64,000 nucleotides of DNA from Gymnopus androsaceus JB14 (taxonomy: Eukaryota; Basidiomycota; Agaricomycetes; Agaricales; Omphalotaceae), in NCBI GenBank assembly GCA_009733575.1, contig ML769654.1, positions 1 through 64,000 on the forward strand. The letters run 5' to 3'. Shown one piece after another: positions 48,086 to 64,000 of the stretch (position 1 is its first letter; every line of letters begins with the position of its first letter). Made by a program: the position numbers and the translations under genes. The notes beneath the pieces are model-generated. The model saw only the letters and a list, made by a program, of their open reading frames with translations. It was not told where the DNA came from and searched no databases.

Positions 48086-50381
48086 CTAGTGGCCAACCCC
48101 TACTAGCTTGATTCCCTCCTTCCTCTTTATCACCTTCCCTCCTACCAAGATGTTTCCTCCCCTCCATGGGGTTGTCTTCTTGGATTTTATTGGGTGTTGG
48201 ATCTGTTTCCTGGTGTAGTCGGCCAATTGGAACTTTTCAAGGCCAAAAGAGCAGTTGTGGGATTCGGCCCATTCTAGAACACTGCCAGGCGCGTTCATCA
48301 ACTGTTCAAGTCGAGCGTGTGTTTCCGAAAAAGAGTCTCCCTGGGCTACCAGCTTTGCATTGTCCATAAATAATAAGCCCAGATCCTTCGCCCTACCAGA
48401 GATGAGCTTGAGTAGGCCTGCATTGTAGAAAAGGTATTGGTCCTAAGGGTGGACACGACTCCGGGTCCCGGTTTACCTGGACCTGTGATGCCGGTAACCG
48501 GAGGGCAAAACTAGCGACCTGCGACCGGTTCCAAACCCGTGGGAAACCGGTTAACCGGTACCGGGACCTGTCACAGGTAAACCGGCCAGTACCTGTGTAA
48601 CCTGCCCATACTAGGGCACTCACTAGTAGTAATAATATTTGTACTAACATTAGTACTTATACTGGTACTAGTATGTTTGTATTAGATTCTAGCACCAATG
48701 TTAGTACTAAATTCAAAGACTGGTAAGTATCCAGCCATTATTGGTACAGTATTCAATACAATGTCAGTGGTAATAATACCAAAATATTGATAATGTCTTT
48801 TGACATGGAGATAGGATCCAAATAAGATCTCTATGCTACTGTATGCACTATCACTGCTACTATAGCTGCATATATGCATCTTAATGTCACCTCTATTATC
48901 TTACTTACTATTAATTAAGCTACTATTGGCAAAGTATTAGTACTATTAGTGTAAGTATACTAGTATTAGACACTAATATCAGTCCCAAGCAGAACTAATA
49001 CATACTGTAAGTACTAACCAATAATATTAGTATACTATATTGGCACTAAGTAGTGAAATATGTACCAATATTAAAGCCAAACATTTGTTCCCATGGGTCT
49101 ACCGGTACCAGCCAGTCACAATAAAAACAAAAATGGTGACCTGCAACCGGGCATAACCCGTGGGAAACCGGTACCGGGACCCGCAGGTTAAAAAACCGGC
49201 CAGTATTCCCACAGGTAAACCTGCCGGTACCGGGTCAGGACCCGGAGTTGTGTCCACCTTTAGTATTGGACTACGGCGAAGGCATCCCCTTGGTCTAGGC
49301 CTCCCAGTGGTTTGAATGGGTCTGATGCAAAGTCATCAAATAGTATGCGCGTTTTCCTGTTTGCGTACCTCCGTTTCATCCACTCAACTATCTTTCTTGG
49401 GACCCCTGCCATTCTCATCTTGTGATATAGCACCTCCAGATCCACACTTGGGTACGCCCCTTTCACGTCTAGCACCAGTGCCGATACCACCTCTCCTTTT
49501 CTCCAAGCCTTCTTGACCGTCGAGATGAATAGATGCAACAAGTCCGTCATGCTGTGCCCTGGTCTGCCCCCAAACTGCATCTGCGGCAGTAGCCCATGCA
49601 GCTCTGCTCCCTTGACCGTGATCTCTGATATAACACTGCTCGAAGGTCGCCCCCAACAACTTGTGAGCACCAGGGGTCTCCATACTCCTGGTATACAATA
49701 GTTGGGTTTCCCTGGTTTGCGAGCTGCAAAGGTCTCGTTGATGGACCAGTCTTCTGGGTAGTACAAAAGGGTGAATGTTGCTCGTAAAAAGGGTCCAAAG
49801 CGGGGGGCAATGAGGGCTGCACACTCCTTGAACAGGACGTTAGGTAGCAAGTCACTTTGGGTTGCTTTGTATGGTTTCATCCGCTTGAAGGCTCGGAAAA
49901 CCTGGTGGTCTGTTGGTAGCTGGAACTCCCAGGCTTCTGGTGGATAGACAGGATTGTCAGGTACTAGAGGGTCAGTTGGGGCCGCAGGGAAGAAGGCCGT
50001 TTTGAATGCTTCCGCCTTTCCTGCATTGTCAGATACCATTCTCTTCCTTCCGTTCTCCTCAACCGTCAAGTCCAGCACCCTGGTAAGTCCTCCATCTGAA
50101 AACCCCCTCTTGGCTAGCTTTGCTGCATCCCAATGGTTGTCCTTCCTCAACTCAAGCAAAAACTCCTCCCAGTGCTTCTTCTTCGTATGCTCCATCTCCC
50201 TGGCCAAGTCCTGTCGAAACCTTTGATACTGTTCATGGATTGGGTGATTCAGGGTATGTCGTTTGTTGTGGGATCTTGTCGCCAAGTTCTTCTTCTGCAC
50301 ATTCATCTTTTTCAGCTCTTTGTTATACCAGCAATGCGAATAAGGGGATGGTTTGACAAGCGGTACATGTTTCTGGACCAC
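48086..50381 (-). pseudogene. LINE reverse transcriptase
   Basis: Fingers and palm are readable: YKATQSDLLPNVLFKEC, EDWSINETFAARKPGKPNY, GVWRPLVLTSCW, GGRPGHSMTDLLH, VVSALVLDVKGAYPSV (first catalytic Asp) and LGGLDQGDAFA. After the MITE at 48444-49262 the frame resumes with LLFMDNAKLVAQG, where the usual FxDD pair reads FMDN. The second Asp is replaced by Asn, one G-to-A step away, so polymerase activity would be lost. Confidence 0.85.
48444..49262. mobile_element. hAT-like MITE, 819 bp
   Basis: Ends TAAGGGTGGACACGACTCC and, reversed, TAAAGGTGGACACAACTCC. GTATTGG flanks both sides with mismatches just beyond, so the target duplication is imperfect. Subterminal regions are dense in ACCGGTAACCGG-type palindromes. 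The centre is AT-rich and rich in TAGTACT. Confidence 0.8.
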
Positions 50382-50463
50382 CTTGTTGATGGTTTTGTTG
50401 AAGGCTGAAAAAATTTTGTCAAATTCTCCCCTGGTCTGGATCTCCTGAATTTGCCCAAGTTGA

Positions 50464-51267
50464 TCAAGGTTCTCCGCACTCAGGGACTACATCCAGCGAA
50501 AGAGAGATCTTTGTAATAATAGCGTAGTGATCGGTGAGTGGAGGGCATAGAGTGGGATCAATGTAACAGCTGAGGACCCGGTCCAAAAGCCAAGTGCTGC
50601 AGAAAACATTGTCAACGTGCGTCTTGTTTTTGGTCCTGAGAGCCTCAAGAGTTGGGGTACCAGGGGCTAGAATCATCTGTAAATTGTTAGTAGAAACAAA
50701 GTCAATGAGGAACTCCGCAGCTCTCAGGTTAGCTGGTGTAAAAAGATGCGCATTGCGAGGTTCATCCCACATGGGGTGGTGTCGGTTGAAGTCTCCTAGC
50801 CAGACATAGTTTCGTGGTCCTCGAGTCGTCAGCAGTGCATCCGTGCTTCGCAAGTAATCTCGCAATGACATTAGAGTGTTATCGTGGTCGCCGTCAACAT
50901 ACAAGTTGATAATTTGCAGGGTGCCATAAACACTGGTGAGCTGGACCGCAGTGATGTCGGGATGTCGGATCGGAATTGCTTTCCACGAGCCAGTAGACAA
51001 CTTCTTGTTAATCATCAACACTGACCTTGATTTTGCTCTGCTTTCCTTGCTGTCTAAGTGGGTCACTGGATAAATAGGGTGAAACTTGAAAATGGATTTT
51101 GTATTGCCGAACTTGTCAATATTTGGTTCCTGCATCGCCAGGATGTCGTGGGTCTCGTCGCTGTTGAATAGCATGTTGAATTGAGCCTGAGGGGATTTAT
51201 TGAGGTTTTGCTGCCAAATCGTTAGTTGCTTCACAGGTATGTTGTCTTTGTTTGGGTCGTTATTCAT
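50464..51267 (-). pseudogene. LINE apurinic/apyrimidinic-type endonuclease
   Basis: Nicks target DNA for target-primed reverse transcription. Starts MNNDPNKDNIPVKQLTIWQQ. Motifs in order: NLNKS, AMQEPNID with the catalytic Glu, LTSVYG with Tyr, YVWLGDFNRHHPMWD with Asp/Asn/His, HVDNVFCS, and PPLTDHYAIITKI with the terminal Asp-His. All catalytic residues look intact over 267 residues. Confidence 0.9.
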
Positions 51268-51299
51268 GCTGACGGGTTAGAGCGACGCACTGGGCTAGG

Positions 51300-51985
51300 T
51301 AGAGATGGGCACAAATAGCAAATATTCATGAGTATTCATGAGTATTTAGCCATTCATTACACGAGTACTTACTCGAGTATAAATAGCCAGTTTGATGTCA
51401 CAAATATTTGTGGTACTTTATTCATGAATATTCGTGAATATTTGCCGATATCACGTGCTCTTTAGCACGAGCATGTGAGGTATTCATTACTTCAGCAAAC
51501 ATTCAATATATAACTTAATTCGGCTATGTTTGAATATGTATATAATGTTATTGACATGTAACTGTAATAAAATCTATGTGGCTTAGTGGTTATGGGTGCT
51601 GACTCTGGATTCAGGTCAGGCCTTCCTGTGATAGCTGACCAGCAGAGTTCAATCCTCAGTACTGCCACAATTTTGTGTCATGTAATAGTACTCGGAAATG
51701 TATACAGACTGTATTTATATCATTATTAAACACTAATATAGTACTTCAACATTATTACTTACATGTTCGAGCCTATATTTACTTTATTTGTAATGTTGTT
51801 AATTAATTACAAGTATACTCGAGTATTCATCCTAAAATACTCGTTATTCACGAATATCTATTCATGAATATATGTCTGTACAAATATTCGAGTATATACT
51901 CGAGTATAAATAGTGGATTTGAGGTGACAAATATTTGTACCACGAATAATGAATATACTCGAGTATGTATTCGTGCCCACCTCTA
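51300..51985. mobile_element. hAT-like MITE, 686 bp
   Basis: Perfect 8-bp target duplication GGGCTAGG (51292-51299 and 51986-51993). Ends TAGAGATGGGCACAAATA and TATTCGTGCCCACCTCTA. Filled with ACTCGAGTA, ATTCATGAATA and ATATTCGTG palindromes. It contains a tRNA-like segment at 51577-51669. Confidence 0.92.
51577..51669 (+). ncRNA. tRNA-like Pol III module (possible SINE head)
   Basis: An A-box-like TGGCTTAGTGG at 51579-51589 and a B-box-like AGTTCAATCCT at 51646-51656 are 67 bp apart. GTGGC near the start can pair with GCCAC near the end, and GTCAG pairs with CTGAC in between as a long variable-arm-like stem. A clean cloverleaf with a 7-nt anticodon loop could not be drawn, so it is more likely a tRNA-derived relic than a working tRNA. 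Confidence 0.4.
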
Positions 51986-51993
51986 GGGCTAGG

Positions 51994-53587
51994 TGGTAAG
52001 GATGTGGGTCTCCTCGGGCAGGTCGGCTTGGGACATGTTGTAGTACATCCCGTTGGATCTCCTTTTCCATCTGAGCCCATTCCTCCGCTCCCTGTCTCTC
52101 CAGCTCATCCAGCTCCCTCATTTGGTCCTTGGTTAGTCCATCTCTGCTTGAGTGAGGTCCCATGTCGGCTATGTAGGAATCCATGGTTTGCTGCTTGCCA
52201 AAATTCCGAGGGGCTGTCGGAGTCGGTTTGCTGGTTTGGAAGCCTGCACCTCCTCCTCTTGGTCCGCCCGCCAGTCTGCCTGTTCCTCTCTGTTCGACTT
52301 GTTGCCAGCCCTTGTCTCTCTCTCTCACTTCGTCTCTCCACGTGTTGTTGAATGTGTCTTGTTGGGAGTCGTTCTCAAAAGTCCATGTTTCTGGGTCCTT
52401 GGTCACAAAGTACTTGTACTGTGCTCCTGCTTTGCGGGCACGTAGGGCTGTTAGTTGGCGGGCAAACGTGCAACAGCTTCCATCGCCTACGTTCTAACCC
52501 ATGCATCGAGTTTCATCTCTTTCTTCAACCAGGCTACTCCTTTCATGCTTGCCAAGTAGAGCAGTGCTCCTCCCAGAATCTTCCTTGCTGAAACGAATCT
52601 GAGAGGGGAGGATCCGTCTCTCATGCCCTTTACCCTGACCTCCTCTAGGCTCAGGTTCGCCGTCTCCACCAACTGCTTTTCCGACATTCCATCCAAATTC
52701 CCTTCTCCCCTGGTGCAAATAACGAGCTTTCATTGGTCGGCATCAGCTTCTAGGATGGCTTGGGTGTGTTGAGCTCAGAGGACATTTCCTACAGCCTTGT
52801 CTGCAACTTGTTCCGCGCAGGCTTCAGCTCCTGCTTTTAAGGCTTCCGCAAATGTCATGTTGAGTTCCCCATGGTTGTTCACAACCGTGTCCAGCTTGTC
52901 AGCTGCCTGAATCTACCTGCCAAATAGTTTGCTGTCAATTCCATTCGTGCCCATCAACTTTCCTTCTAGTTCCTTCATCTTTGCCGTTGCCTCTTCCATC
53001 TTCAATGCTGCCTCATTGACTCGTTGGTGTGCCCTGAGCGCAATGTTCAATGTCGAGGATTCCACCTTCTCCAACTTCTTCTCCAAGTCTTTCATGGGGC
53101 CCTCGAGCTGGCATTTGACTTGGTTGCCAATGACGTCGGCAAAGTGGGTTTTCGTCTTGGATTTTGAAAGTAGAGTGGGTTTCTCGAATGACGTGACAAT
53201 GGCATCTGCTAAGCCGTCAGCCAGCCCTTCCAGTATGTCAACAGTGGCTGGGCTCGACCTCATCTCTCCCATTCTTCTCTCTATCCCTTCTGTCACTTTC
53301 AGTGTGATCCTTCCTACCATCTCATCTTCCCATGTCTCCTTGAAACAATCCTTCAGGTAGACAGTGACCCACTGAACTCTCTGCCATTCCTCTTTGCGTG
53401 CTTGGGTGGCTGCATTGCCTTCTGAGTAACTCTTCGCGGTCTCAATCAGTCTTCCTAGACAGTCTGGGATCTCGTTATTGTTGTCGGAAATCCACCCGAT
53501 TCTCTTCAGGTTTCTCTCTGCGTCTAAAGTCTTCAGACTCTGTGTTCTTTGTGTCAATGGTGGTGGGGATGCCATAGTTGATGCCAT
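51994..53587 (-). pseudogene. LINE ORF1
   Basis: Starts MASTMASPPPLTQRTQSLKT. The first 225 residues are charged and helical with a coiled-coil-like end (LEKKLEKVESSTLNIALRAH, then heptads). After a stop near 52913 it continues in other frames (52733-52490, 52406-51994) with Gly/Arg-rich and Gln-rich stretches. ORF1 proteins of such LINEs bind the element RNA; this one is split by at least two frameshifts. Confidence 0.65.
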
Positions 53588-53890
53588 ATTGGTCCGTTCT
53601 TCTCAAGTGTGTTATATTAACTCTGTACCAACTCCTCACCTGTAAGTCCCCACTATAGACTTGTATAAAAGCTGAGGGAGGGTACTCTATGGCTTGTACA
53701 CAAGTGGATAAGGGGAATTCCCCAGGTATGAATAAAACCCACTAAAGTTTTGACTAATCGGACCAGAAATCGGACTTAGGAGCTGTCGGAGCCCTTGGAG
53801 TGCTTGGCGGGCGCTTCCTTCATCAGTGCTTAGAGTTCTTACTAAATAGAGAAATAGGTGTCTATCTGCAGCAACTGAGTAAGGTAGTAT

Positions 53891-56839
53891 TTACAACGAT
53901 TGATCTACAGCTACAGACAGAGCCACATCTAGCTCTCCGTCAAGTTCGTCATCATTGTCCTCCTCCTCTAGCTCACTACCAGGCTCTTCATTAAACCACG
54001 GAGCATCTCTGACCTCAGCATCTCGGGCAAACCCTTGCTTTGCTACCACAACTCCAGGCAAAAAGTATTTGTTGTTACTGAAGTTGAAGCCATCCAAGCG
54101 CTTGATAGAGAGCAGCCTACAGTGATGCTGCTCATTGAAGCGACCTCGCTCCTGCCAATGGAGAGTAATCTGCAGCGCTAAAGCCGGATCAGTTGCCTCA
54201 AGTGATTTCACCATGCTCAATAGCAGATACTCTTCATCTTGCATGTAGGTGAATAATGTCCTCCCATGAGACACGACGGCGAGGAGGAGACAAGGCGATG
54301 GCAGCTTCGTTGTGAGCAGTGATCACGGATTGGATGGTCTTTGATCTGAGCTTTAGGGCATTTGCGATATGCTTCCGCATCTTGTAACCTGGGAGACTTG
54401 CTTCAGACAACATAAGGATATAATAAAAGAAACAAAGGCGCACCAGTACCCGCTACATTCAACCTCGTCATCTCAAACATCCTGGCAACCAGCAGGCCCT
54501 CAAGCTTATCCAAGGCCTTGCAATAAGTAGCCTCCCTCACCATCTTCTTTGTCGCACACCATTTCTCCGAGCCCTCTACCCAACGTTCATTGACCTCCAA
54601 CTTCCACTCCAACACCTGGCAGTCAGCAATGAGCTTACGCTCATTCTCGATCTCATTCCAACACCTCCTTTCCAAGGCAGGGCCTTGATCACAGGCTCCC
54701 GTAGCCTTATAGCCCCACCATGCCTCCCGAACTTCCTTGAGGCAACTCACACATGCGTACAGCCCCTCTAACTTCTGAAAGTACTCCATCTCTAGGGTTT
54801 CTCTAGCCGGAACCTTCTGGAGGCTGCGAAGATACTCCCCCTCCTCCGTGAGCCAGTCGTAGAATGTGTCCGAGGTTACAATCCCAGCCTCCTTCATCCC
54901 CTTAGTGACAGCACCTCTACCTTGAAGGATGCCCAACGCCTGCTTATAATTGTTGTAGATGAATAGGCTTGACTTCGCATAGGTTTTGAAGTTATCTTGG
55001 CGATAAACAAATTCGGCAATAGCTTGGCGGCGACGGAAGATGGATTGGTGGCGAGTTATTCCTGCCAGGGCATTGGCAACAGTGAAGTAGTGTTCACAGG
55101 CTTCACCGTCCTCGATCCCAGTCCCGACAATGTAAAGCATCAGAAACAGCAGCTGGCACTTCCGCTCATGGGTGTAGCCATGCATTGTACCAATAATGGG
55201 AAGGTATCTGCACCACTCAGCGAGATTTCTCAAAGGGCTCCGTTTAACCGTCTTCGAGAGCTTGCAATGAACATCGTATGAGATGGCAAGCTTGCCCTCT
55301 GGCCTGCCTTCGCCAGTAGCTTTACGCTCCTCCGCTTCTCCAGCCATGTAGTGGTGCAGCATAGCCAATGGATATTTCGATCTGAACGGGGGAACCAATG
55401 TCAGCGTCTGAAGGTCAGATAACGCTTGAAAGCCTTACTGCTCCCCGCTACGAATCATGTCGCAACACTTCAACATCATCATATGTCGACAGAGAAACAC
55501 AAACCAACTGCATTCCATGAACTTCCCCACAGATTGTGCAGTCTTCTTATCTTGAGTGTTGTGCCATCTCTCTTCACATTGACCTTCCTCCCACAGATGC
55601 TGCTCCGCAGCGGAAAGAGTGATATCCACCCCCAGCTCATGAACCACATCCCACTTCTTCTCTTCCCACTGATCAACATCACCGGACGCAAGAAAATAAT
55701 CCCCCCCTCCTACATGGTGGTCAGAGCGCTCCCTTGAAGGTGCTACAGTAGGCCCAGCTTCTTCATCAGTAAAGACATTGTGCTTCAAGTCGTCGGTCCT
55801 CTCAACCCTCCGCAAGGAGTTGTTCCCATCAAAGGTCGCTAGCATCCGGACGTCCAGCTTCTCCTCACCCTCAAGACGATACTGACAGGCAGGGCAGGCA
55901 TTCAGCATGCGCCAGCTGTCACCGTTGCATCCGAGGCACTTCCTAACTTCAAGATGAACACCATTAAGGATGGCAACATATAGATCAAACGCAATGGAAA
56001 GCTGGGTGGAAAGATACGGCCTGAACGCCACCCCTTTCATGTCACATAAAGCTTTGGCAAAAGGTTGTATTCCCACCTTTGGGCAGCAGGTGAAGAGGCT
56101 ATGGTAAAGAGAGATGGTTCGAATTGTGATGGCAGTTTTATGGGAAAGAGGGGCCATTGGAAGTAAGCCAGCAGAGATGAGGCTGGAGGAGTCATGAGTG
56201 AGCCCGTCAAGTACTGGAACCTCTTGAGCAAAAGAGCCTGGAGATAATGAGCCAGTGCAATACATATAAAAGGAAAAGCGAACCAAAGATGTCCACTATG
56301 TCCAGCTGCAAGACCTTCATAGTTTTTCGGACTTGCTCACGGTTTTTCCTCTCCATGTAGTCCCAGTCCATGTAGGCAACAACCATCTCTTCCAGCTGAT
56401 TTGAAAACCTTCGCCAAGTGTTATCAGTTCAATCCCGGCGCGTCCTAAAGTCTTTGTGCCGCGTCCTCATGAGCTTCTTCATCCTTTCCTTTGTCTTAGC
56501 AAGGCCTTCATCCCCATCATCGTCCTCCCAATTCAAATTGTTGCCAGCTCCCTCCAAGAAAGCCCCATTATCCTCTGGAAGGTCGTGCTCGTTGACTAGC
56601 ATATCAAAGCCAGGCGCAGCAAAGTCCTCGTTGGCAACAAAAGACGGAGCATCTTTGAACCGTCTAGCAGCTTCTGCAGCGTTGCCCTGTTTTTGAAGCT
56701 TCTAGATAGCCGAATGCCTCAAGGTGCGAGTTGGAATACCGTTTGTAGCCCGGCGTTGAGAGGCGGAGGTCCCTTGAAGTCCGTGGCTAGGCCCTTGCAA
56801 TGAAAATACCCTCCGTGTGTTGGCTCGAGCAGGGGCCAT
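53891..56839 (-). pseudogene. KDZ (Kyakuja-Dileera-Zisupton) transposase, inactivated
   Basis: DNA transposase of the KDZ class, RNase H-like fold. Exons on minus: 56284-56839, 55439-56237, 54444-55381 and 54388 downward; introns of 46, 57 and 55 bp keep phase. Family blocks: AYMDWDYMERKNREQV, LPMAPLSHKTAITIRTIS, CDMKGVAFRPYLSTQLSIAF, the zinc cluster CLGCNGDSWRMLNACPACQY, MLATFDGNNSLRRV, ISYDVHCKL, and GTGIEDGEACEHYFTVANAL with TRHQSIFRRRQAI. Three lesions: TAG at 56702-56704 (codon 46), TGA at 56429-56431 (codon 137), and a one-base frameshift near 54255, after which an acidic C-terminus is read in another frame to 53891. Both stops are one C-to-T step from Gln or Arg codons. Divergent from the TET/JBP gene. 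Confidence 0.9.
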
Positions 56840-57003
56840 CAAGTCGTCAATAGGAGCTTAGAATTTTGTATGGACAAAACAAAGAAATAAACGCCAAAGT
56901 CGAAGGTGAGCAATTGGTCATGCTGAGCAATCATCACATGCTTATGTTTTCCGCGATCAAAACTTAAGCAGCGCCACTCTTACTCTTGCTCTCAACAACC
57001 ATC
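56840..57003. promoter_or_regulatory. Bidirectional region between KDZ and TET/JBP genes
   Basis: 164 bp separate the KDZ ATG and the TET/JBP ATG. CAAT-like and CT-rich stretches precede the dioxygenase start (CTCAACAACCATCATG). No TATA box is evident. The two genes are head-to-head and could have shared one promoter region within a mobile unit. Confidence 0.5.
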
Positions 57004-58631
57004 ATGCCCACCAAGCGCAAGTTTGACCCCAGCCAATTCAAAAGTGAGTAACCCCCTCTGCCATCACTTCTCCCTTTCTTCTATTGCTGCAACCCCGGGC
57101 TCGCCAGAAGCAGCTGCTGAATGCTACCCCAGGCTTGGCGGAGGCGGAACGCGTTTTATTAAATTACCTTTGGCTCCTCTTCTGCGCAATATCCCTTACT
57201 TAGCTAACACACCCTCTAGCTGAATTCCGAGTGCTACACAACCAAAAGCACTTCAGCCCGCATTCCTTCAGCACTGAGGTCACCATAACCCAAGCTGACC
57301 CTCAAGCATTGTTAGCAGGAGGTTTGCTGCGCCAAGAAGCAGCCCTTCAATTTGCTGACATCAATGAGCTGGTCCCTCTCAAGACCTACTCTCTTCCTCC
57401 TCGACCTCAAAAAACGCCACAGCCCCTCCCTCTCTCTCTCCTTTCCTCCCTTCCCTCGATTCCACCTCCGCTGTCCAAGAAGGCCCGGCTAGATGCCTAC
57501 GCTACGCTGCCCACAGGTAAGCCTGCTTGCTATTTGAAGAAGAGGGCTGTGTATCGCACCTCTCGTGCCAACAAACGTGAGAAGGAGCAGCAGGCGGCTG
57601 GCACCATTGTGAAGGCTCACATACGGGGGAAGGTCGAAGCTGCGGCTGCATCTGCGGTCGTAGTCGCCACTGCCAGCTTTGCTGTAGTCCCCGCGGGCCG
57701 TTGGTCTGGCATCCGAGCACCATATAGCCCAAAGGTATATTCCAGCACTGAGGTCTTCAGCATGTTGGGCCTGACATTGGTCCAAGCTAATGGGTGGGTT
57801 TCTTTTTTCCTACTTTTCTCACCTATGCTCATAGCCAAAGCTGTTAGGCGGAGCCAAGTCATTCAAACGTCTGATGGATGTCGAGTCATGGCTCACTTCT
57901 ACCCCTCCAGCACGCCTGGCTGGAGAGGCATTGTCCAGAGGGCAGGCTCGGTCCTTGAGCAGATGTATAGCAAGGTGGTAGTGCCTGAGGCACTCAAGCG
58001 CCAATGCCGGGGCAGCTACGTCTCTCTGCCAGCTGGGTATGGGTTTGGCGGAGGGAGGCACATGCCAGGCTCCTACACCAACACTCCTCACAATGCGCAA
58101 GTCATTCAGCAGGTTCTCAACAACCCGGACATCTGGAGCATTGCCAGAATGGTCAACCGAGGCCTTCTTGCTTATTTTCCCAAGCTGCATGCCCTCGCTG
58201 TTAACCTCGATCACCAGATTGTCAACGTAGATAACTCTCAGATTGAACGCACCTTCCATGGCTGCTGCTACCCAGCGCTGCATTTCAACCTTCACAACGC
58301 CTGGACACTCATACATGAAGACTTCTGGAACCTGGTCTTCTTCATGTGCGCCGTGGCATCCTTTGGGCCATTTGATCATACCTGTGGAGGGCATATCATT
58401 GCTTGGTCTCTGGGGCTCGTTCTAGAGTTTCCTTCTGGAATGGCCATGTATCTTCCTTCAGCCTGCATGCCTCACTCGAACACCCCTGTAGCTTCTCACA
58501 AGTGGCGTTTGTCGATGGCGTTCTTTGTGCCGGCTGGTCTCGTACGCTGGTTCCATAACAGGTTTTGTTTAGACAAGGATTTTAAAGACCATGCGTCTGC
58601 CCAGCAGCTGAGGGCTTGGAACAAGCACTGA
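57004..58631 (+). CDS. TET/JBP-family 2-oxoglutarate/Fe(II) dioxygenase
   Basis: Members of the family oxidise 5-methylcytosine in DNA (TET) or thymine (JBP); the substrate here is inferred to be 5-methylcytosine. Exons 57004-57043, 57220-57793 and 57848-58631 sum to 1398 nt, giving 465 aa. The in-frame 54 bp intron (57794-57847) is chosen because the retained reading inserts a hydrophobic non-family stretch. The N-terminus is basic and Pro-rich (MPTKRKFDPSQFK). A conserved RGSYVSLPAGYGFGGGR segment follows. The jelly-roll core has the iron-binding HED triad pair at His361/Asp363, FGPFDHTCGGHIIAW, MYLPSACMPHSN with His414, and WRLS with Arg425, the expected 2-oxoglutarate ligand. All metal and cosubstrate residues are present and the frame is open, unlike its KDZ neighbour. 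Family call is from memory of motif patterns. Confidence 0.82.
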
Positions 58632-59149
58632 GCTAGCCTCTCGGAGTATGGCATGGGTCTTCTACAATACGCGCTGTAATTGAGCTTGGCCAATTGTTTT
58701 TATACTACCTTGTGCGCCTGTAGATAACGTAGCAATGAACCCTGTACATGCCTGAGATCATGAATGCGCATGAAAGATGGAGTTTGACTGGAAATGTGGG
58801 CGGTACTGCGTTTCTGAGGTGTAGGTACAAAATGTATACACACTCATAAAATAAGGATTTATCACCTAAAACTCGAATTAAAAGAGGACATGTTAATGCT
58901 TGGATTCTAGGTTATTACCAGGTATACTAGCAACCTCTAGCTACAAACTGAGCTATTCAGAATTCACTGGCGATAAGTACAAGTGTATAAAATAAGTTAT
59001 TTTGGTCAGCCCATGAAATGCTAAGATCAAAACGACATTGACACTTACAATCAAATATGATGTTACCCAGCTTTCCTCCAAACTTCGACCATCCTTCAGC
59101 TGGATTTCAACCTTCAGCTTAACTGCCTTATTCAAGCTGTTTATTATCA
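58632..59149. other. 3' flank of the TET/JBP gene
   Basis: No coding region was recognised. Confidence 0.5.
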
Positions 59150-59814
59150 ATGCCTCGATACTGTACCGACTCCGCTATCAAAAAAGCTAAACGCACAGAC
59201 GTGCAGCAAGCCGAAGTTACAAGGGGAAGGCGAATTGGGTATTCTCGCTGGAACCATTGCAAGTAGGTGTTATTCCCCTTATTGCTCTTTCATTTCTCTG
59301 CGGTAAGGTGTGATAAGTGTTTACTAATATTCTTTTCTACTATTTACAGAAATAAAGTCAAGTCCAATGCCAGGAACAGTGCGTGGATGGCAGAGTCAGT
59401 CCGATATCCTGCCTCTCGGGCTTCTACTGCTTTAGGCTAATGTGCATTGGTTAGAAAACGGGCTGGGCTAAATGATCAAGAAATGGCAAAGGCTTGAGAA
59501 CGCCAGAAAGAGGTGTCGAGGAGATCTTACCTCAAGTGTGTTCGCTTTTTTGTTCTATTTCATGCATTGAGTTCATGTTTTGCTTGTTTGCTTACAGGAA
59601 TAGGGATAAAATCCTACTTAAATCCAAGGATAAGAGAATGAGGTTTGTCTTAGCCCCTTCAATTCCTGCTCAGCAGCAACCTCATCTCGATCTCTTTAGT
59701 GAGCATATGAAGAAGTTTGGGCCTGACGCGATTTGGTGGTACAAGATGCACAAGGGGACTCGTACAGTGGGGCTGGACGGCAAAGATGAAGAGCAGGATG
59801 GGGGGGCATGCTGA
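59150..59814 (+). pseudogene. Small unrecognised gene, probably frameshifted
   Basis: Exon 1 (59150-59262) gives MPRYCTDSAIKKAKRTDVQQ, then a basic stretch up to RWNHCK. A GT-AG intron (59263-59349) follows. Exon 2 gives NKVKSNARNSAWMAE, then apparently a further intron. A block reading DQEMAKA and LENARKRCRGDL needs a one-base shift to stay in frame. The last exon, after 59596, encodes NRDKILLKSKDKRMRF, then LFSEHMKKFGPDAIWWYKMH. Basic N-terminus and absence of known motifs; function unknown. Its place beside the TET/JBP gene suggests it may belong to the same mobile unit. Confidence 0.4.
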
Positions 59815-60108
59815 TCTCTAGGATAGTTGAACTTTGCTATTTCGCTATTGTTTTCTGTATTGTTGCGTCTTGCGTGGCATAGGCTTTTACTCCTTAGTCT
59901 ATTTTGCAAGTCACTCTGTGCTACATTTTTTATAAATACAAAATTGCTTGTTGCTGTGCGCTGCCTTTCTTATCTCTTCAAGCAAAAATTTAAGCTAGCT
60001 GATTGATGATGCGTTTCGACATTATATGTTATGTACATTTTGATAGCAATATATGTAAAGCAATAGGCGGTACCAAGATAAGAGCCCTCGAGGAGCAGCG
60101 TAGGCTCG

Positions 60109-60956
60109 CTATGCAAACAGACGCGTCGCTGGAAGATACCTGACCTTTCCCTGCATCTTCCAATGGTTGAACATGGCGCATGCTTGCGAAGCGGTTCCGT
60201 TCAAGGCCATGACAACTCCACCCCACCATCCAAGCCCATCAGACATCATGAGGCCTCTGGAATGAAATCACGTTAGCATTAAAAGTGAGGAGAAAGTAAA
60301 GGCACTAACCTACAAATGTAAACTCCGGGCTTGACACCTTGAAGAACGACATAGACGTCATCGGCCTGTACATCGTGCTTCAGCATGTTGATAACACCTG
60401 TGTTCTTTGCCTCCTGATAATGCAGCTCCGCTTGCTCGAGGTTTGGAAAAGATTTATGCAGGGCATTGTTGTAGTTTCGAATGTGCTGGTCAATGCCCTC
60501 CTGTTCTACAGTAGAATGGTAGATGGTAAAAACGCCGTCAGAATGATCGTGTCCATCGAATAGAATGTAAACTCTGGGCCCTGCATCTGCAGCTGCTACA
60601 GGAGGAGCAGGAGAGGCTGGAGGAGGAGGGCTCTGCTCCGGCATCTGGAAACGACCTCCAGGGATAACGGCTGGTCCACTCGTAGGCTTGGTAGGAGAGG
60701 CAGGGGGGCTTGCTATAGCAACAACTTGGCGGCTGCGGCTGGGCGTGCTAAATGGGCTATCTTCTGGGGCAGCTGGCCCGCTCGTGGGCTTCGTAAGAGA
60801 GGCAGGGATGCTTGCTATAGCAACGGCTCGGCGGCTGTGGCTCAGCGTGCTGAATGGGCTATCTTCTGGGGCAGAGCTGGCTGAACGGCCTGCAAAGTGA
60901 TGTCGAGCCTCATGCATGCTTGTGCATGAATCTCGACAAGTCCTTTGGACTTGCAT
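60109..60956 (-). CDS. Viroplasmin/RNase H1 N-terminal-like domain protein
   Basis: Two exons, 60310-60956 and 60109-60256, sum to 795 nt, giving 264 aa. Residues 1-120 are Ser/Pro/Ala-rich with two near-identical repeats of about 35 residues (APEDSPFST...TKPTSGPA). Residues 125-250 hold two tandem modules resembling the hybrid-binding N-terminal domain of RNase H1 and caulimovirus viroplasmin. The first reads PRVYILFDGHDHSDGVFTIY, then NNALHKSFPNLEQAELHYQE; the second YVVLQGVKPGVYICRG, then GGVVMALNGTASQACAMFN. Such modules bind RNA:DNA hybrids or dsRNA. No catalytic RNase H follows. Assignment is by pattern only. The start is the first ATG (60956). Confidence 0.6.
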
Positions 60957-61053
60957 TCTGATTACCTGATTACCCCTATTCCTGTAGTATTTAAGTAGTC
61001 ACATACGTATTACAAATCAGATTGGCTTTTGTTCGTAACAACCATCTCCTCAG

Positions 61054-61560
61054 CTACGTCTGCTGCTGAGTACGTCTCGACGACGGAACGGGGACGCTCA
61101 GACTCCCTCGGTTTCTCCCCTCGAACTCGCGCAGGTTTGAGCCACGCTCAAAGCTCATTCCGGCGCCACAGTGAGCTGAGGAGTATACGCTGTGTATTAT
61201 TCCTAAGAAGGCGTTAGAGAAGCATGGCTTGTATTGATAAAATTCCTCACCAAAAGCCGACCAAACTCCTTTGTCGACGTTGTCCCATTCTTCCTCTGTA
61301 AATTTGAGGCTTTCGTGGCGGTCATCTTCTAGAAAGAGAGGGGGATATCTCTTGAAGGGCTGTTGTATTTAGGTAAAAGTCACTTACCCATGGCCAGCCT
61401 AATCTGCTCGTCCCGAATCCTACACCCAATTCTACGCTCCTCGTCATCCAGCGGTTTGAGCGCCTTTTGCGGAGTGGTTGGTTTGTTGTCAGGTTTGTTT
61501 TCTGCCGTATGTCGTTGATACGCCGATTTTTTGGCTAAGGCTAGAACTGTGCAGAACCAA
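61054..61560 (-). CDS. Partial hypothetical gene, three exons
   Basis: The minus strand reads LAKKSAYQRHTAENKPDNKP, then LDDEERRIGCRIRDEQIRLA. A GT-AG intron (about 61331-61388) is followed by MEDDRHESLKFTEEEWDNVD and KGVWSAF. A second intron leads to a Ser/Arg-rich end at a TAG (61054-61056). Phases agree across both introns, which supports coding. No start codon was found upstream, so the 5' end is missing or in a distant exon. No family was recognised. Confidence 0.4.
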
Positions 61561-63643
61561 TAATCCTAGGTTCTGTTAGTAACAAAACACGGTCAATAAG
61601 AGAACTATAGTGAGCCCGAGCTGATAGTTAAAATCTACCGAGGACCTATTCTACCCAAGAGGTTGCAGAGTAACAGTACGCGCAATGGTACCATACTTAA
61701 CTTTGTGAATGCGCCTCGATCAAAGTCCTATGCGCGGTATGGTGTAGCGAGGCAAGCTTGCTGGATAACAAGTTGCTGACCAAGGCAAATAAACGAGCCC
61801 ACATACCAGTTATACTAGGCTAGGTCATCGAAGGATATACCCAAGGGATCGAAGTCTTAACGAGGCATCGCTTCCGCGATCAGCTCACCGAGGAGTCTAA
61901 ACGACACTCAAGTTTATTAAACGAAGCAAGGTGGACCGAGATGAGGAAGTACCCTAACGGGTGCCCTCAAAGTTGACGCTTGCTGGAAAGCGTCCAGGCA
62001 GATAGCCGCGGCAGTCCAACGCGGCCACATGACCCACTTGCTGTAGCTACTTCTAGAGCACGGAAGGACCAAGGAGTGTTTCTATCCGAGCCTCAGCGTT
62101 TTACCGAGATCCATATGCTACCAGGCATCTAGACTCGAGACCGCGCGGAACTAGGGATAATAACCAGTCTCCCATTGGCAAGGAAAAACATAGAAATACT
62201 TCTGAGGGCTGTTCTGCTAAAGGAACTGGCGAGCCTTGTAAAAAGGCAAATGACTTGAGTCGATTCGGACCAAAATCCCAAAAGTTGACCCAATCGAGGA
62301 AGACAAACGAACGAGGCAGGAAAACGTCGAGACAAAACCATAGTATACACGCATATATGGACATTATTTATCTTTTTCTATTTTACTTACTCTGTTTCAT
62401 CCTATCTCGCTCAGTTTCTCTCATTTTCCTATTTTCATACATCTCGCTCAGTATATAAGGGTAGCTATTCCATCTCGGAATGACAAGTTAGACTTGATAC
62501 CTGAAACGCAGTTCTATCTTAGGACCTGTAGTGATTCGTACATGCTCAGATGCGTCTGCATCGTCCTCTACAACCTTTGAAACGGGTGGCCTTCTTGTAA
62601 CCTCGATAATACTGAGGCTGTTCATTCTACTTCCCGGCTATTAAGTTGAGCATTCCTGGTTTTCATCTCGAAGAGAGGTCACATCAGTCTTAGGACCGCA
62701 GGTGGAGCCTAACATGCACACCTTGACGAGCCCGTTGTTGATTAGGAAAGGTCTTGGACCCAAGTGTCGGCTTGGTCTAGTTTTAGGGAGGAAGCTTCTC
62801 GGAGTGTTACCTAGCTTTACCAACAGATTCTACCCCTTGCCTGCTCTTCGCTGAGTGTGTTAAAAACGCCTACTCGAGTGACTTGCACGGCGGTCGTATA
62901 AGCTTGCTAGGTAACTTGCGGGAATCCCTGAGAGTTGGAGTATCATTGCGCGGCGACGTAAAGGCTCCCGAGATACGTAAAGTTGTTTGTTGAGTCGGCG
63001 TACTTGACCCGTGCTTTGGGGTTTGCTTTTCCCCTTGATTAGTTCAGCGCGTCGTCGTATGTTAGTTGGCTTTTCAAAACCTCCCTCCAAATATAAAACC
63101 TTGTTCATCGCGCACTATCTGTGTCAACTGTCAAGTGCTTTTTCTCTTCGAATCAATTAGTAGTCGAGGGAACCTTCGACAACCTCCTTCCTTGCATTAA
63201 ATTAAACCTTTTGGATTATATCTGATTGGGGTGATTGTTGTTTGGTTGGTTTTCATACCTAGCACAAATCTAACTCATCATCGTGAGAAGATTTGATTCT
63301 GAGATTAGAATTAGAATGTGATGATGCCGACAAAGCATACCTGTCATTTCTTGTTTCTTAGCTTTGACCACGATCTGCAGCGTAGAAAGAGAAGAGTTGG
63401 TCTTTGCGGAAGATGGAGGGGAAAACCAAGCTGTTGTGTAAGTTGCTGTTCGGCGTTTTGAACCTTACTGACTTACTCACGCCACTTTCAGTGCTTCGCT
63501 TTCAGCTGGCGTTTTGCGATTTTTTGAACGCGTTTCTTACCTTTCAAAAATTTCACTTTGGCTTCCTTCAGTGGATCACTCTCAATCGGTTTTTTGTGTT
63601 CTTTTTGACGCGTTTTTTATCTTTCAAAAAGTTTACCTTGACC
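61561..63643. other. Interval without a supported gene
   Basis: No coding region is supported on either strand. Bases 63470-63640 contain a two-copy tandem repeat of about 75-80 bp (each with a GACGCGTTT-like or GAACGCGTTT-like core and CTTTCAAAAA), lying in the presumed 5' region of the next gene. Confidence 0.5.
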
Positions 63644-64000
63644 ATGTCGATCATCTTCACCGAGCCTATCATTAATGCTATCATGGACGCCTCTGAGCTT
63701 CGTGAGGAGGGTCCGCCGCTAGTTTCTCAGCCAGTGCTCGCATTGATAAGTAGTTTTTTTTTTTCAATTTTGCTTTGAGATCCTTCGTAAACGGTGCTTT
63801 CTAGCTAATTCTCCAGAGAGGCCTACGCCTACAAACTATTGCCCGTGCTCTAGTGCTACTGGCAACCTTCTGACTGCGCTTGGTATGTTTTTTTGATTAG
63901 ATTTTTAATCTCATTTTTATTCACCAGCCCATCCTGCAGCTAATTCTGATCCCGAAAATACACCTCCTACGCGTCCTACTTCTTCAAAAACTAGCTCTGT
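63644..64000 (+). CDS. 5' end of an unrecognised gene, runs off the window
   Basis: Exons 63644-63749, 63805-63882 and 63928 to the edge. Phases agree and all introns are GT-AG. The N-terminus reads MSIIFTEPIINAIMDASELR, then PLVSQPVLALITNSPERPTP, a CPC motif and a Pro/Thr/Ser-rich stretch. Too little is present to name it. Confidence 0.5.

What the first reader, a model, noticed from the sequence alone, without database searches (positions are those of the whole stretch)
53891..58631. Head-to-head KDZ transposase (dead) and TET/JBP dioxygenase (intact)
The sequence shows a KDZ-class transposase divergent from a 465-aa protein with a full TET/JBP-type active site (His361, Asp363, His414, Arg425), 164 bp apart. 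Published work on fungal TET/JBP expansions (Iyer and colleagues, 2014) linked these two families in basidiomycete transposons. Here the transposase has two stops and a frameshift while the dioxygenase frame is open, which suggests the dioxygenase may be retained by the host or be active in trans.
Basis: partly seen in the sequence, partly recalled or inferred. Interest (0 to 1): 0.9.

Follow-up and report, generated by a model that had tools for sequence, protein, structure and literature searches.

The report
Fungal transposon carrying TET-like dioxygenase
This is a complete jumping gene from a litter-decaying mushroom that carries its own DNA-demethylation-type enzyme beside its transposase; both genes are now decaying, so it is a new variety of a known kind of transposon rather than an enzyme adopted by the host.

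Summary
Four other elements show perfect 8-bp duplications. The transposase is KDZ and broken by two stops and a 167-bp deletion. The dioxygenase is TET-like by predicted fold, though Pfam Tet_JBP misses it; its active-site residues are present. It is not intact: it stops about 18 codons early, at a codon that is Arg in 14 of 23 other copies and TGA in four. A frame this open is expected a third to a half of the time under neutral decay. Host retention is unsupported; activity in trans is not excluded. The family differs from the published Kyakuja/AG and PE types: TIRs, 8-bp duplication, Asn and Cys at two base-recognition positions. Close copies differ largely by CpG mutation. Verdict: new variant of a known kind.

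The parts
53629..53636 (.). left copy of the 8-bp target-site duplication CAACTCCT (right copy at 66397-66404, outside the window)
   Evidence: 8 of 8 identical to the bases after the right end
53637..53836 (.). left terminal inverted repeat, starts CACCTGTAAGTCCCC; its partner ends at 66396 on the same contig
   Evidence: 195 of 200 bases match the right end, first 123 without a mismatch; left end found at the same base in 6 of 8 copies examined, window included
53637..64000 (.). the part of the transposon that lies in the window; the whole element is 53637-66396, 12,760 bp
   Evidence: TIRs plus perfect 8-bp TSD
53891..56839 (-). KDZ transposase gene, broken
   Evidence: Pfam KDZ PF18758 3.1e-27 and 2.2e-16; homologues; gene structure
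54252..54262 (-). junction of a 167-bp deletion with frameshift in the transposase
   Evidence: block coordinates against 6 copies; frame change against P0038 and P0040
54389..54449 (-). transposase intron, not a lesion
   Evidence: GT..AG by eye; left out in P0038/P0040, read into by P0020
55382..55438 (-). transposase intron that holds an in-frame TAA, not a lesion
   Evidence: GT..AG by eye; 19 residues absent from P0038, P0040, P0035
56429..56431 (-). in-frame stop TGA in the transposase
   Evidence: sense codon in 5 of 6 aligned copies, TGA also in C346
56702..56704 (-). in-frame stop TAG in the transposase
   Evidence: sense codon in the 6 copies that align there; C406 does not align
57004..58631 (+). 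TET-like dioxygenase gene, 465 aa, exons 57004-57043, 57220-57793, 57848-58631; ends at a premature TGA 58629-58631
   Evidence: frame and splice sites; fold; truncation
58314..58508 (+). active-site stretch: H362, D364, N367, C373, H415, R426 (466-aa unspliced numbering)
58817..59811 (+). third gene of the element, exon borders not settled
   Evidence: blastn/tblastn to C145, C251, C406; no Pfam match for its last frame at E <= 1
60115..60998 (-). fourth gene: Ribonuclease H1 N-terminal (Cauli_VI) domain protein
   Evidence: PF01693 4.3e-05, 24.1 bits over cut-off 21; conserved in C145, C251, C406
61513..63287 (.). nested insertion of a young high-copy repeat inside the element
   Evidence: at least 39 other copies, 28 in one piece and 11 in two, at 93-97% identity; only 40 of 644 candidates were scored
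63386..64000 (+). start of the fifth gene, which runs on to about 65.9 kb on the contig
   Evidence: tblastn to C406 and C251, blastn to C145 and C406; no Pfam match over cut-off

Best explanation
A complete KDZ-class DNA transposon of Gymnopus androsaceus, with long TIRs and 8-bp target duplications (Zisupton/Dileera-like, not Kyakuja-like). It carries at least five genes, one of them a TET-like 2-oxoglutarate/Fe(II) dioxygenase that diverges from the transposase. Shown: boundaries, pairing, residues; fold by prediction. Inferred: in intact copies the dioxygenase oxidises methylated cytosine on the element's own DNA and so relieves host silencing, which lets the transposase be made. The window copy inserted recently and is now decaying, with both genes hit; its dioxygenase was not kept for the host.
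Against: No activity, expression or methylation data could be examined. Pfam Tet_JBP matches 2 of 19 members, at E 0.01 at best, and sequence profiles find no TET chain in the PDB. The models are of middling confidence (mean pLDDT 53.7 and 70.6). For the second model only three Foldseek matches are under 0.001, all NgTET1; FTO comes fourth, before TET2, and CcTet is not among the 50 rows shown; by Z, TET2 leads PHD2 by only 0.5 to 0.9. dS exceeds 1 or cannot be computed in every pair, so there is no sound dN/dS for the window's own branch.
Confidence: 0.8

Rival explanations
1. The dioxygenase of this copy has been kept by the host as its own enzyme while the transposase died.
For: The frame is open over the whole catalytic domain and the catalytic residues are present, while 12 of 25 other copies in the genome have lost the 2-oxoglutarate-binding Arg. 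The transposase has three lesions.
Against: The premature stop removes about 18 residues, most of the last helix of the P0002 model. 9 of 85 conserved columns altered. Expected number of stops since insertion is 0.7-1.1 in this frame, P(none) 0.33-0.50. The element is still bounded by near-identical TIRs and a perfect TSD.
Confidence: 0.05
2. The truncated dioxygenase is still an active enzyme that works in trans on other elements of the family and on methylated repeats at large.
For: Active-site set complete; the stop lies 41 codons after the catalytic Arg codon. Kojima 2025 (PMC12730594, section 26) reports from others' work that oxidised cytosines lie on several transposon types in Coprinopsis and Laccaria, so target choice may be loose.
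Against: Loss of most of the last helix of the model (helix 238-264 of P0002) and changes at conserved sites, such as Trp beside the catalytic Arg, where none of the 16 other members with a residue there has it.
Confidence: 0.2
3. It is an ordinary TET+ Kyakuja transposon with an AG-type dioxygenase, as already described.
For: Same pairing of KDZ transposase and TET-like gene; same order, Agaricales (PMC12730594).
Against: Kyakuja is described with 7-bp TSD and no TIR; here 8 bp and about 200-bp TIRs. The CcTet Asp337 and Gly331 positions carry Cys and Asn (counted without gaps from the HxD motif).
Confidence: 0.08
4. The dioxygenase acts on a protein or on RNA rather than on DNA.
For: PHD2 comes next after TET by Z and FTO is fourth by Foldseek for the second model. 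UniRef names of relatives begin 'Prolyl 4-hydroxylase a' (P0004, P0016) and 'JmjC domain-containing' (P0009).
Against: TET structures lead in Foldseek E-value and in Z for both models. The Asn of HxDxxN and the Phe six residues after the Arg fit the TET base pocket by spacing. The gene sits in a transposon class known for TET genes.
Confidence: 0.07

Closest known systems
TET+ Kyakuja transposons of Agaricomycetes
   Same: KDZ transposase next to a TET/JBP-like dioxygenase in the same element, in Agaricales
   Different: Kyakuja: 7-bp TSD, CA..TG ends, no TIR, AG-type enzyme. Here: 8-bp TSD, about 200-bp TIR starting CACCTG, enzyme without the AG residues
TET+ Zisupton transposons (Auriculariales; Agaricus bisporus; Kojima 2025)
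   Same: 8-bp TSD and TIRs are given for Zisupton; KDZ transposase; TET-like gene
   Different: From the text the Agaricus bisporus ones appear to carry the PE type with HxE (my reading; the type per family is in a figure I could not see); here HxD. Place in the transposase tree not tested
CcTet of Coprinopsis cinerea (PDB 7vpn, 7w5p, 8jkk; PMC11040006)
   Different: The Gly331 position is Asn and the Asp337 position Cys in this family, so 5mC recognition should resemble TET2 (Asn1387) more than CcTet; 13-15% identity
NgTET1 of Naegleria (PDB 4lt5, 5cg8, 5cg9)
   Same: Best fold match by E-value and Z for the P0002 model
   Different: 13-16% identity over 193-197 residues; whether it is transposon-borne was not looked up

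Membership tests
KDZ transposase | Pfam KDZ domain over the curated cut-off | tested here: met
   96.1 and 60.6 bits, cut-off 26.6
KDZ transposase | catalytic DDE triad | not tested
   no reference alignment with marked catalytic residues was at hand
DNA transposon | terminal inverted repeats enclosing the genes | tested here: met
   195 of 200 bases match
DNA transposon | target-site duplication | tested here: met
   8 of 8 bp in 5 of 5 elements read at both ends
Kyakuja | 7-bp TSD and no TIR | tested here: not met
   8 bp and about 200-bp TIR; criteria from PMC12730594 section 18
Zisupton or Dileera | 8-bp TSD (and TIR for Zisupton) | tested here: met
   criteria from PMC12730594 sections 4 and 10
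Zisupton or Dileera | place in the KDZ transposase tree | not tested
   no named reference sequences available
TET/JBP dioxygenase | double-stranded beta-helix fold closest to TET enzymes | tested here: met
   models of middling confidence, and FTO precedes TET2
TET/JBP dioxygenase | HxD..H iron triad and 2OG-binding Arg | tested here: met
   window H362, D364, H415, R426; family counts
TET/JBP dioxygenase | Pfam Tet_JBP over the curated cut-off | tested here: not met
   no hit for the window at E <= 1; 2 of 19 members, best E 0.01. A model can miss divergent members: Kojima reports weak HHpred scores for the PE type
TET/JBP dioxygenase | oxidises 5mC (or T, in JBP) in DNA | not testable with these tools
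   needs an enzyme assay
AG-type TET | Asp at CcTet 337 and Gly/Ser at 331 | tested here: not met
   Cys 17 of 18 and Asn 18 of 18, positions counted without gaps from HxD; Kojima states these residues for Kyakuja, not for AG-type Zisupton
PE-type TET | HxE in place of HxD | tested here: not met
   Asp 17 of 18, Asn in one, Glu in none
domesticated host gene | intact frame under purifying selection apart from the transposon | tested here: inconclusive
   premature stop; terminal-branch selection could not be measured, dS above 1 or not computable; relative-rate tests not significant with 5 of 6 outgroups

The most novel reading that the evidence does not exclude
The family is a fourth type of transposon-borne TET enzyme, carried by a TIR/8-bp-TSD KDZ element in Gymnopus, Rhodocollybia and Lentinula, with a TET2-like Asn in the base pocket (so 5mC- rather than 6mA-directed) and a Cys where CcTet needs Asp337. 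Its carriers are being destroyed by CpG mutation of the very mark the enzyme should remove, including at the codon of its own catalytic Arg, in a subphylum where hypermutation was reported as not detected. This would catch a methylation arms race inside one transposon family.
Probability: 0.35. Interest if true: 0.65.

Novelty: new variant of a known kind. Interest (0 to 1): 0.45.

Why it matters
TET-carrying transposons are known, but which KDZ lineage carries which enzyme type, and whether the enzyme protects its carrier, are open. Here one genome holds a large family with clear ends, a dioxygenase type that the standard model misses, and copies of several ages. That lets one ask directly whether copies with a complete active site lose fewer CpG sites than copies without, and whether the Asn/Cys pocket prefers 5mC over 6mA.

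Tried and rejected
Pfam and PDB sequence profiles for the dioxygenase gave no TET match over threshold; homology to TET therefore rests on predicted folds and spacing of motif residues. The one Tet_JBP match of the genome (C425, E 1e-4, below cut-off) is another protein: profile comparison with this family gave probability 4.5% over 22 columns. A viral-contig scan found 130 pattern matches and no relative. dN/dS: dS was above 1 or not computable in every pair. Relative-rate tests of the window against its nearest protein: dioxygenase P = 0.36, 0.38, 0.44, 0.50, 0.019, 0.86 with six outgroups, transposase P = 0.08 to 0.83 with six; the window has more changes in all 12 comparisons, which are not independent, so neither acceleration nor slowing is shown. 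Deviation from conserved columns, 9 of 85, is high but not unique (P0016 13 of 88, P0003 10 of 91, P0004 10 of 92). CpG depletion of the two genes (0.59, 0.53) is not special: 4-kb blocks of the window range from 0.21 to 1.01. No right TIR of C251 was found in the 13.1 kb read. Left ends of C145 and C614 were not found at the guessed places. The neutral-decay figure for the transposase was computed partly in a wrong frame and is not used.

Seven of the 28 neighbour pairs within 6 kb are not head-to-head and were not followed.
Full report
WHERE IT IS. The window is the start of contig C272 of an 83.3-Mb genome in 934 contigs. Annotated proteins of Gymnopus androsaceus JB14 (BT96DRAFT names) come from contigs of 886118, 328232, 104511 and 29457 bases, the lengths of C5, C41, C241 and C585 here, so I take the genome to be that one.

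THE TWO GENES. The minus-strand gene matches Pfam KDZ on two exons (96.1 and 60.6 bits, cut-off 26.6). Its start codon is at 56837-56839. The plus-strand gene starts at 57004, 164 bp away, and encodes 465 aa once two introns, 57044-57219 and 57794-57847, are left out. The transposase carries two in-frame stops, TAG 56702-56704 and TGA 56429-56431, and a deletion of 167 bp near 54252-54262 (167 against 5 of 6 copies, 166 against one), which shifts the frame and removes about 55 residues. Two other apparent stops fall in introns: P0038 leaves out both, P0020 reads into the second.

THE ELEMENT. Several copies begin at the same base, 53637. The same sequence lies inverted at 66193-66396 on the contig. 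The ends match at 195 of 200 bases, without a mismatch in the first 123. The flanks carry CAACTCCT on both sides, 8 of 8. Four more elements read at both ends, C406, C534, C346 and the 1.69-kb C163, which has no frame over 120 codons, have perfect 8-bp duplications as well: 5 of 5. The element holds further genes: a third at 58817-59811, whose last frame has no Pfam match; a fourth with a Ribonuclease H1 N-terminal domain on the minus strand (24.1 bits, cut-off 21); and a fifth from about 63.4 kb to 65.9 kb. The third and fourth are found in C145, C251 and C406; the fifth matches C406, C145 and, at its start, C251. A young repeat, with at least 39 other copies at 93-97% identity, sits inside the element at about 61513-63287.

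A FAMILY, NOT A SINGLE CASE. Six-frame searches of the genome gave 103 matches to the dioxygenase and 95 to the transposase core. Merged, they make 75 and 68 loci (one transposase row was left out by oversight). 21 dioxygenase loci have a transposase head-to-head within 6 kb, and 7 have one within 6 kb in another orientation. Named relatives of the dioxygenase come from Rhodocollybia, Lentinula and Gymnopus. In Lentinula edodes a dioxygenase (P0014) and a transposase (P0035) both lie on a contig of 7122 bases, which suggests that the pair is conserved across genera; equal length is the only evidence.

IS THE DIOXYGENASE INTACT? No. Relatives run on for about 18 residues in a final helix (residues 238-264 in the P0002 model; the stop falls at P0002 residue 248). 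Of 24 sequences read at this codon, the window included, 14 have Arg, 5 TGA (window, C127, C172, C227, C803), 2 Trp, and one each Lys, Gln and Cys; C227 and C803 are close copies. The window departs from consensus at 9 of 85 conserved columns (P0002 4 of 90, P0001 1 of 90, but P0016 13 of 88). With 1.25% divergence since insertion, half of the TIR mismatch rate, and the CpG bias, the frame should have gained 0.7 stops, P(none) 0.50; with 2%, 1.1 stops, P(none) 0.33. An open catalytic domain is therefore no sign of retention. Family-wide, third codon positions differ most (19/12/46% at positions 1/2/3 for the transposase against C534, 22/14/53% for the dioxygenase against C241), so both proteins were constrained while the family was active, and dN is lower for the transposase in the 5 of 5 copies where both were compared.

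HOW COPIES DIE. Among 25 other genomic copies read over the active site, the catalytic Arg is replaced in 12 (Cys 4, His 3, Gln 2, Gly 2, stop 1), while H362, C373, H415 and F432 are kept in 25 of 25, and D364 and N367 in 24 of 25 each. Eight pairs aligned at 75% identity or more: in four pairs with 2-8% difference, CpG/TpG-type changes make up 56 of 91, 41 of 66, 69 of 100 and 42 of 119 differences; one pair has a single difference, of this type; in three pairs with 15-23% difference they are 93 of 647, 76 of 611 and 21 of 238. In the first four pairs C/T differences occur at 202 of 711 CpG sites against 63 of 3724 other C sites, with TCG highest (67 of 175). CpG is depleted in the window's two genes (observed/expected 0.59 and 0.53), but so is much of the window (4-kb blocks 0.21 to 1.01). 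[quoted passage not shown] Whether the present pattern is family-specific or general CpG decay of this genome was not tested.

MECHANISM. Most likely the element encodes a transposase and a DNA dioxygenase from one short divergent promoter region; the dioxygenase oxidises methylated cytosine on the element and opposes silencing and its mutagenic outcome. Shown: anatomy, pairing, ends, residues. Predicted: fold. Inferred: substrate, anti-silencing role. This copy inserted recently and is decaying in both genes.

COMPARISON. Kojima 2025 (PMC12730594; abstract and sections 4, 10, 18, 22, 23, 26, 34 read) describes TET+ Kyakuja with 7-bp TSD and no TIR, gives 8-bp TSDs for Zisupton and Dileera, and sorts the enzymes into types PU, AG and PE. 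Its main text names Gymnopus only for G. confluens and does not hold the words Lentinula, Rhodocollybia or Omphalotaceae; its tables could not be read. Searches showed, in the rows listed (20 of 28, 30 of 65, 20 of 50, 1 of 1), no title or abstract start on this family. Iyer et al. 2014 is not held. I therefore call this a new variant of a known kind.

Noticed in passing
window 61513-63287: A repeat of about 1.77 kb with at least 39 other copies at 93-97% identity is nested in the transposon; the longest stop-to-stop frame inside it is 133 codons.
   Followed up: partly
window 49260-53587: Minus-strand reverse-transcriptase-like and endonuclease-like frames and a further frame form what looks like a non-LTR retrotransposon directly left of the element (my reading of the translations, not searched).
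   Followed up: no
L054 (C163:131976-133668): A 1.69-kb apparently non-autonomous relative with TIR ends of this family and a perfect 8-bp TSD; longest frame 120 codons.
   Followed up: partly
C23, C32, C80: Distant dioxygenase and transposase pairs in convergent orientation, perhaps a second architecture of the same gene pair.
   Followed up: no
L006/L011, L016/L017, L019/L021: Strong CpG-type mutation between close copies (C406/C428, C227/C803, C106/C544), highest at TCG, in an agaricomycete.
   Followed up: partly
L001 (C425:9685-9906): The only six-frame Tet_JBP match of this genome (E 1e-4, below cut-off) is a different protein.
   Followed up: partly
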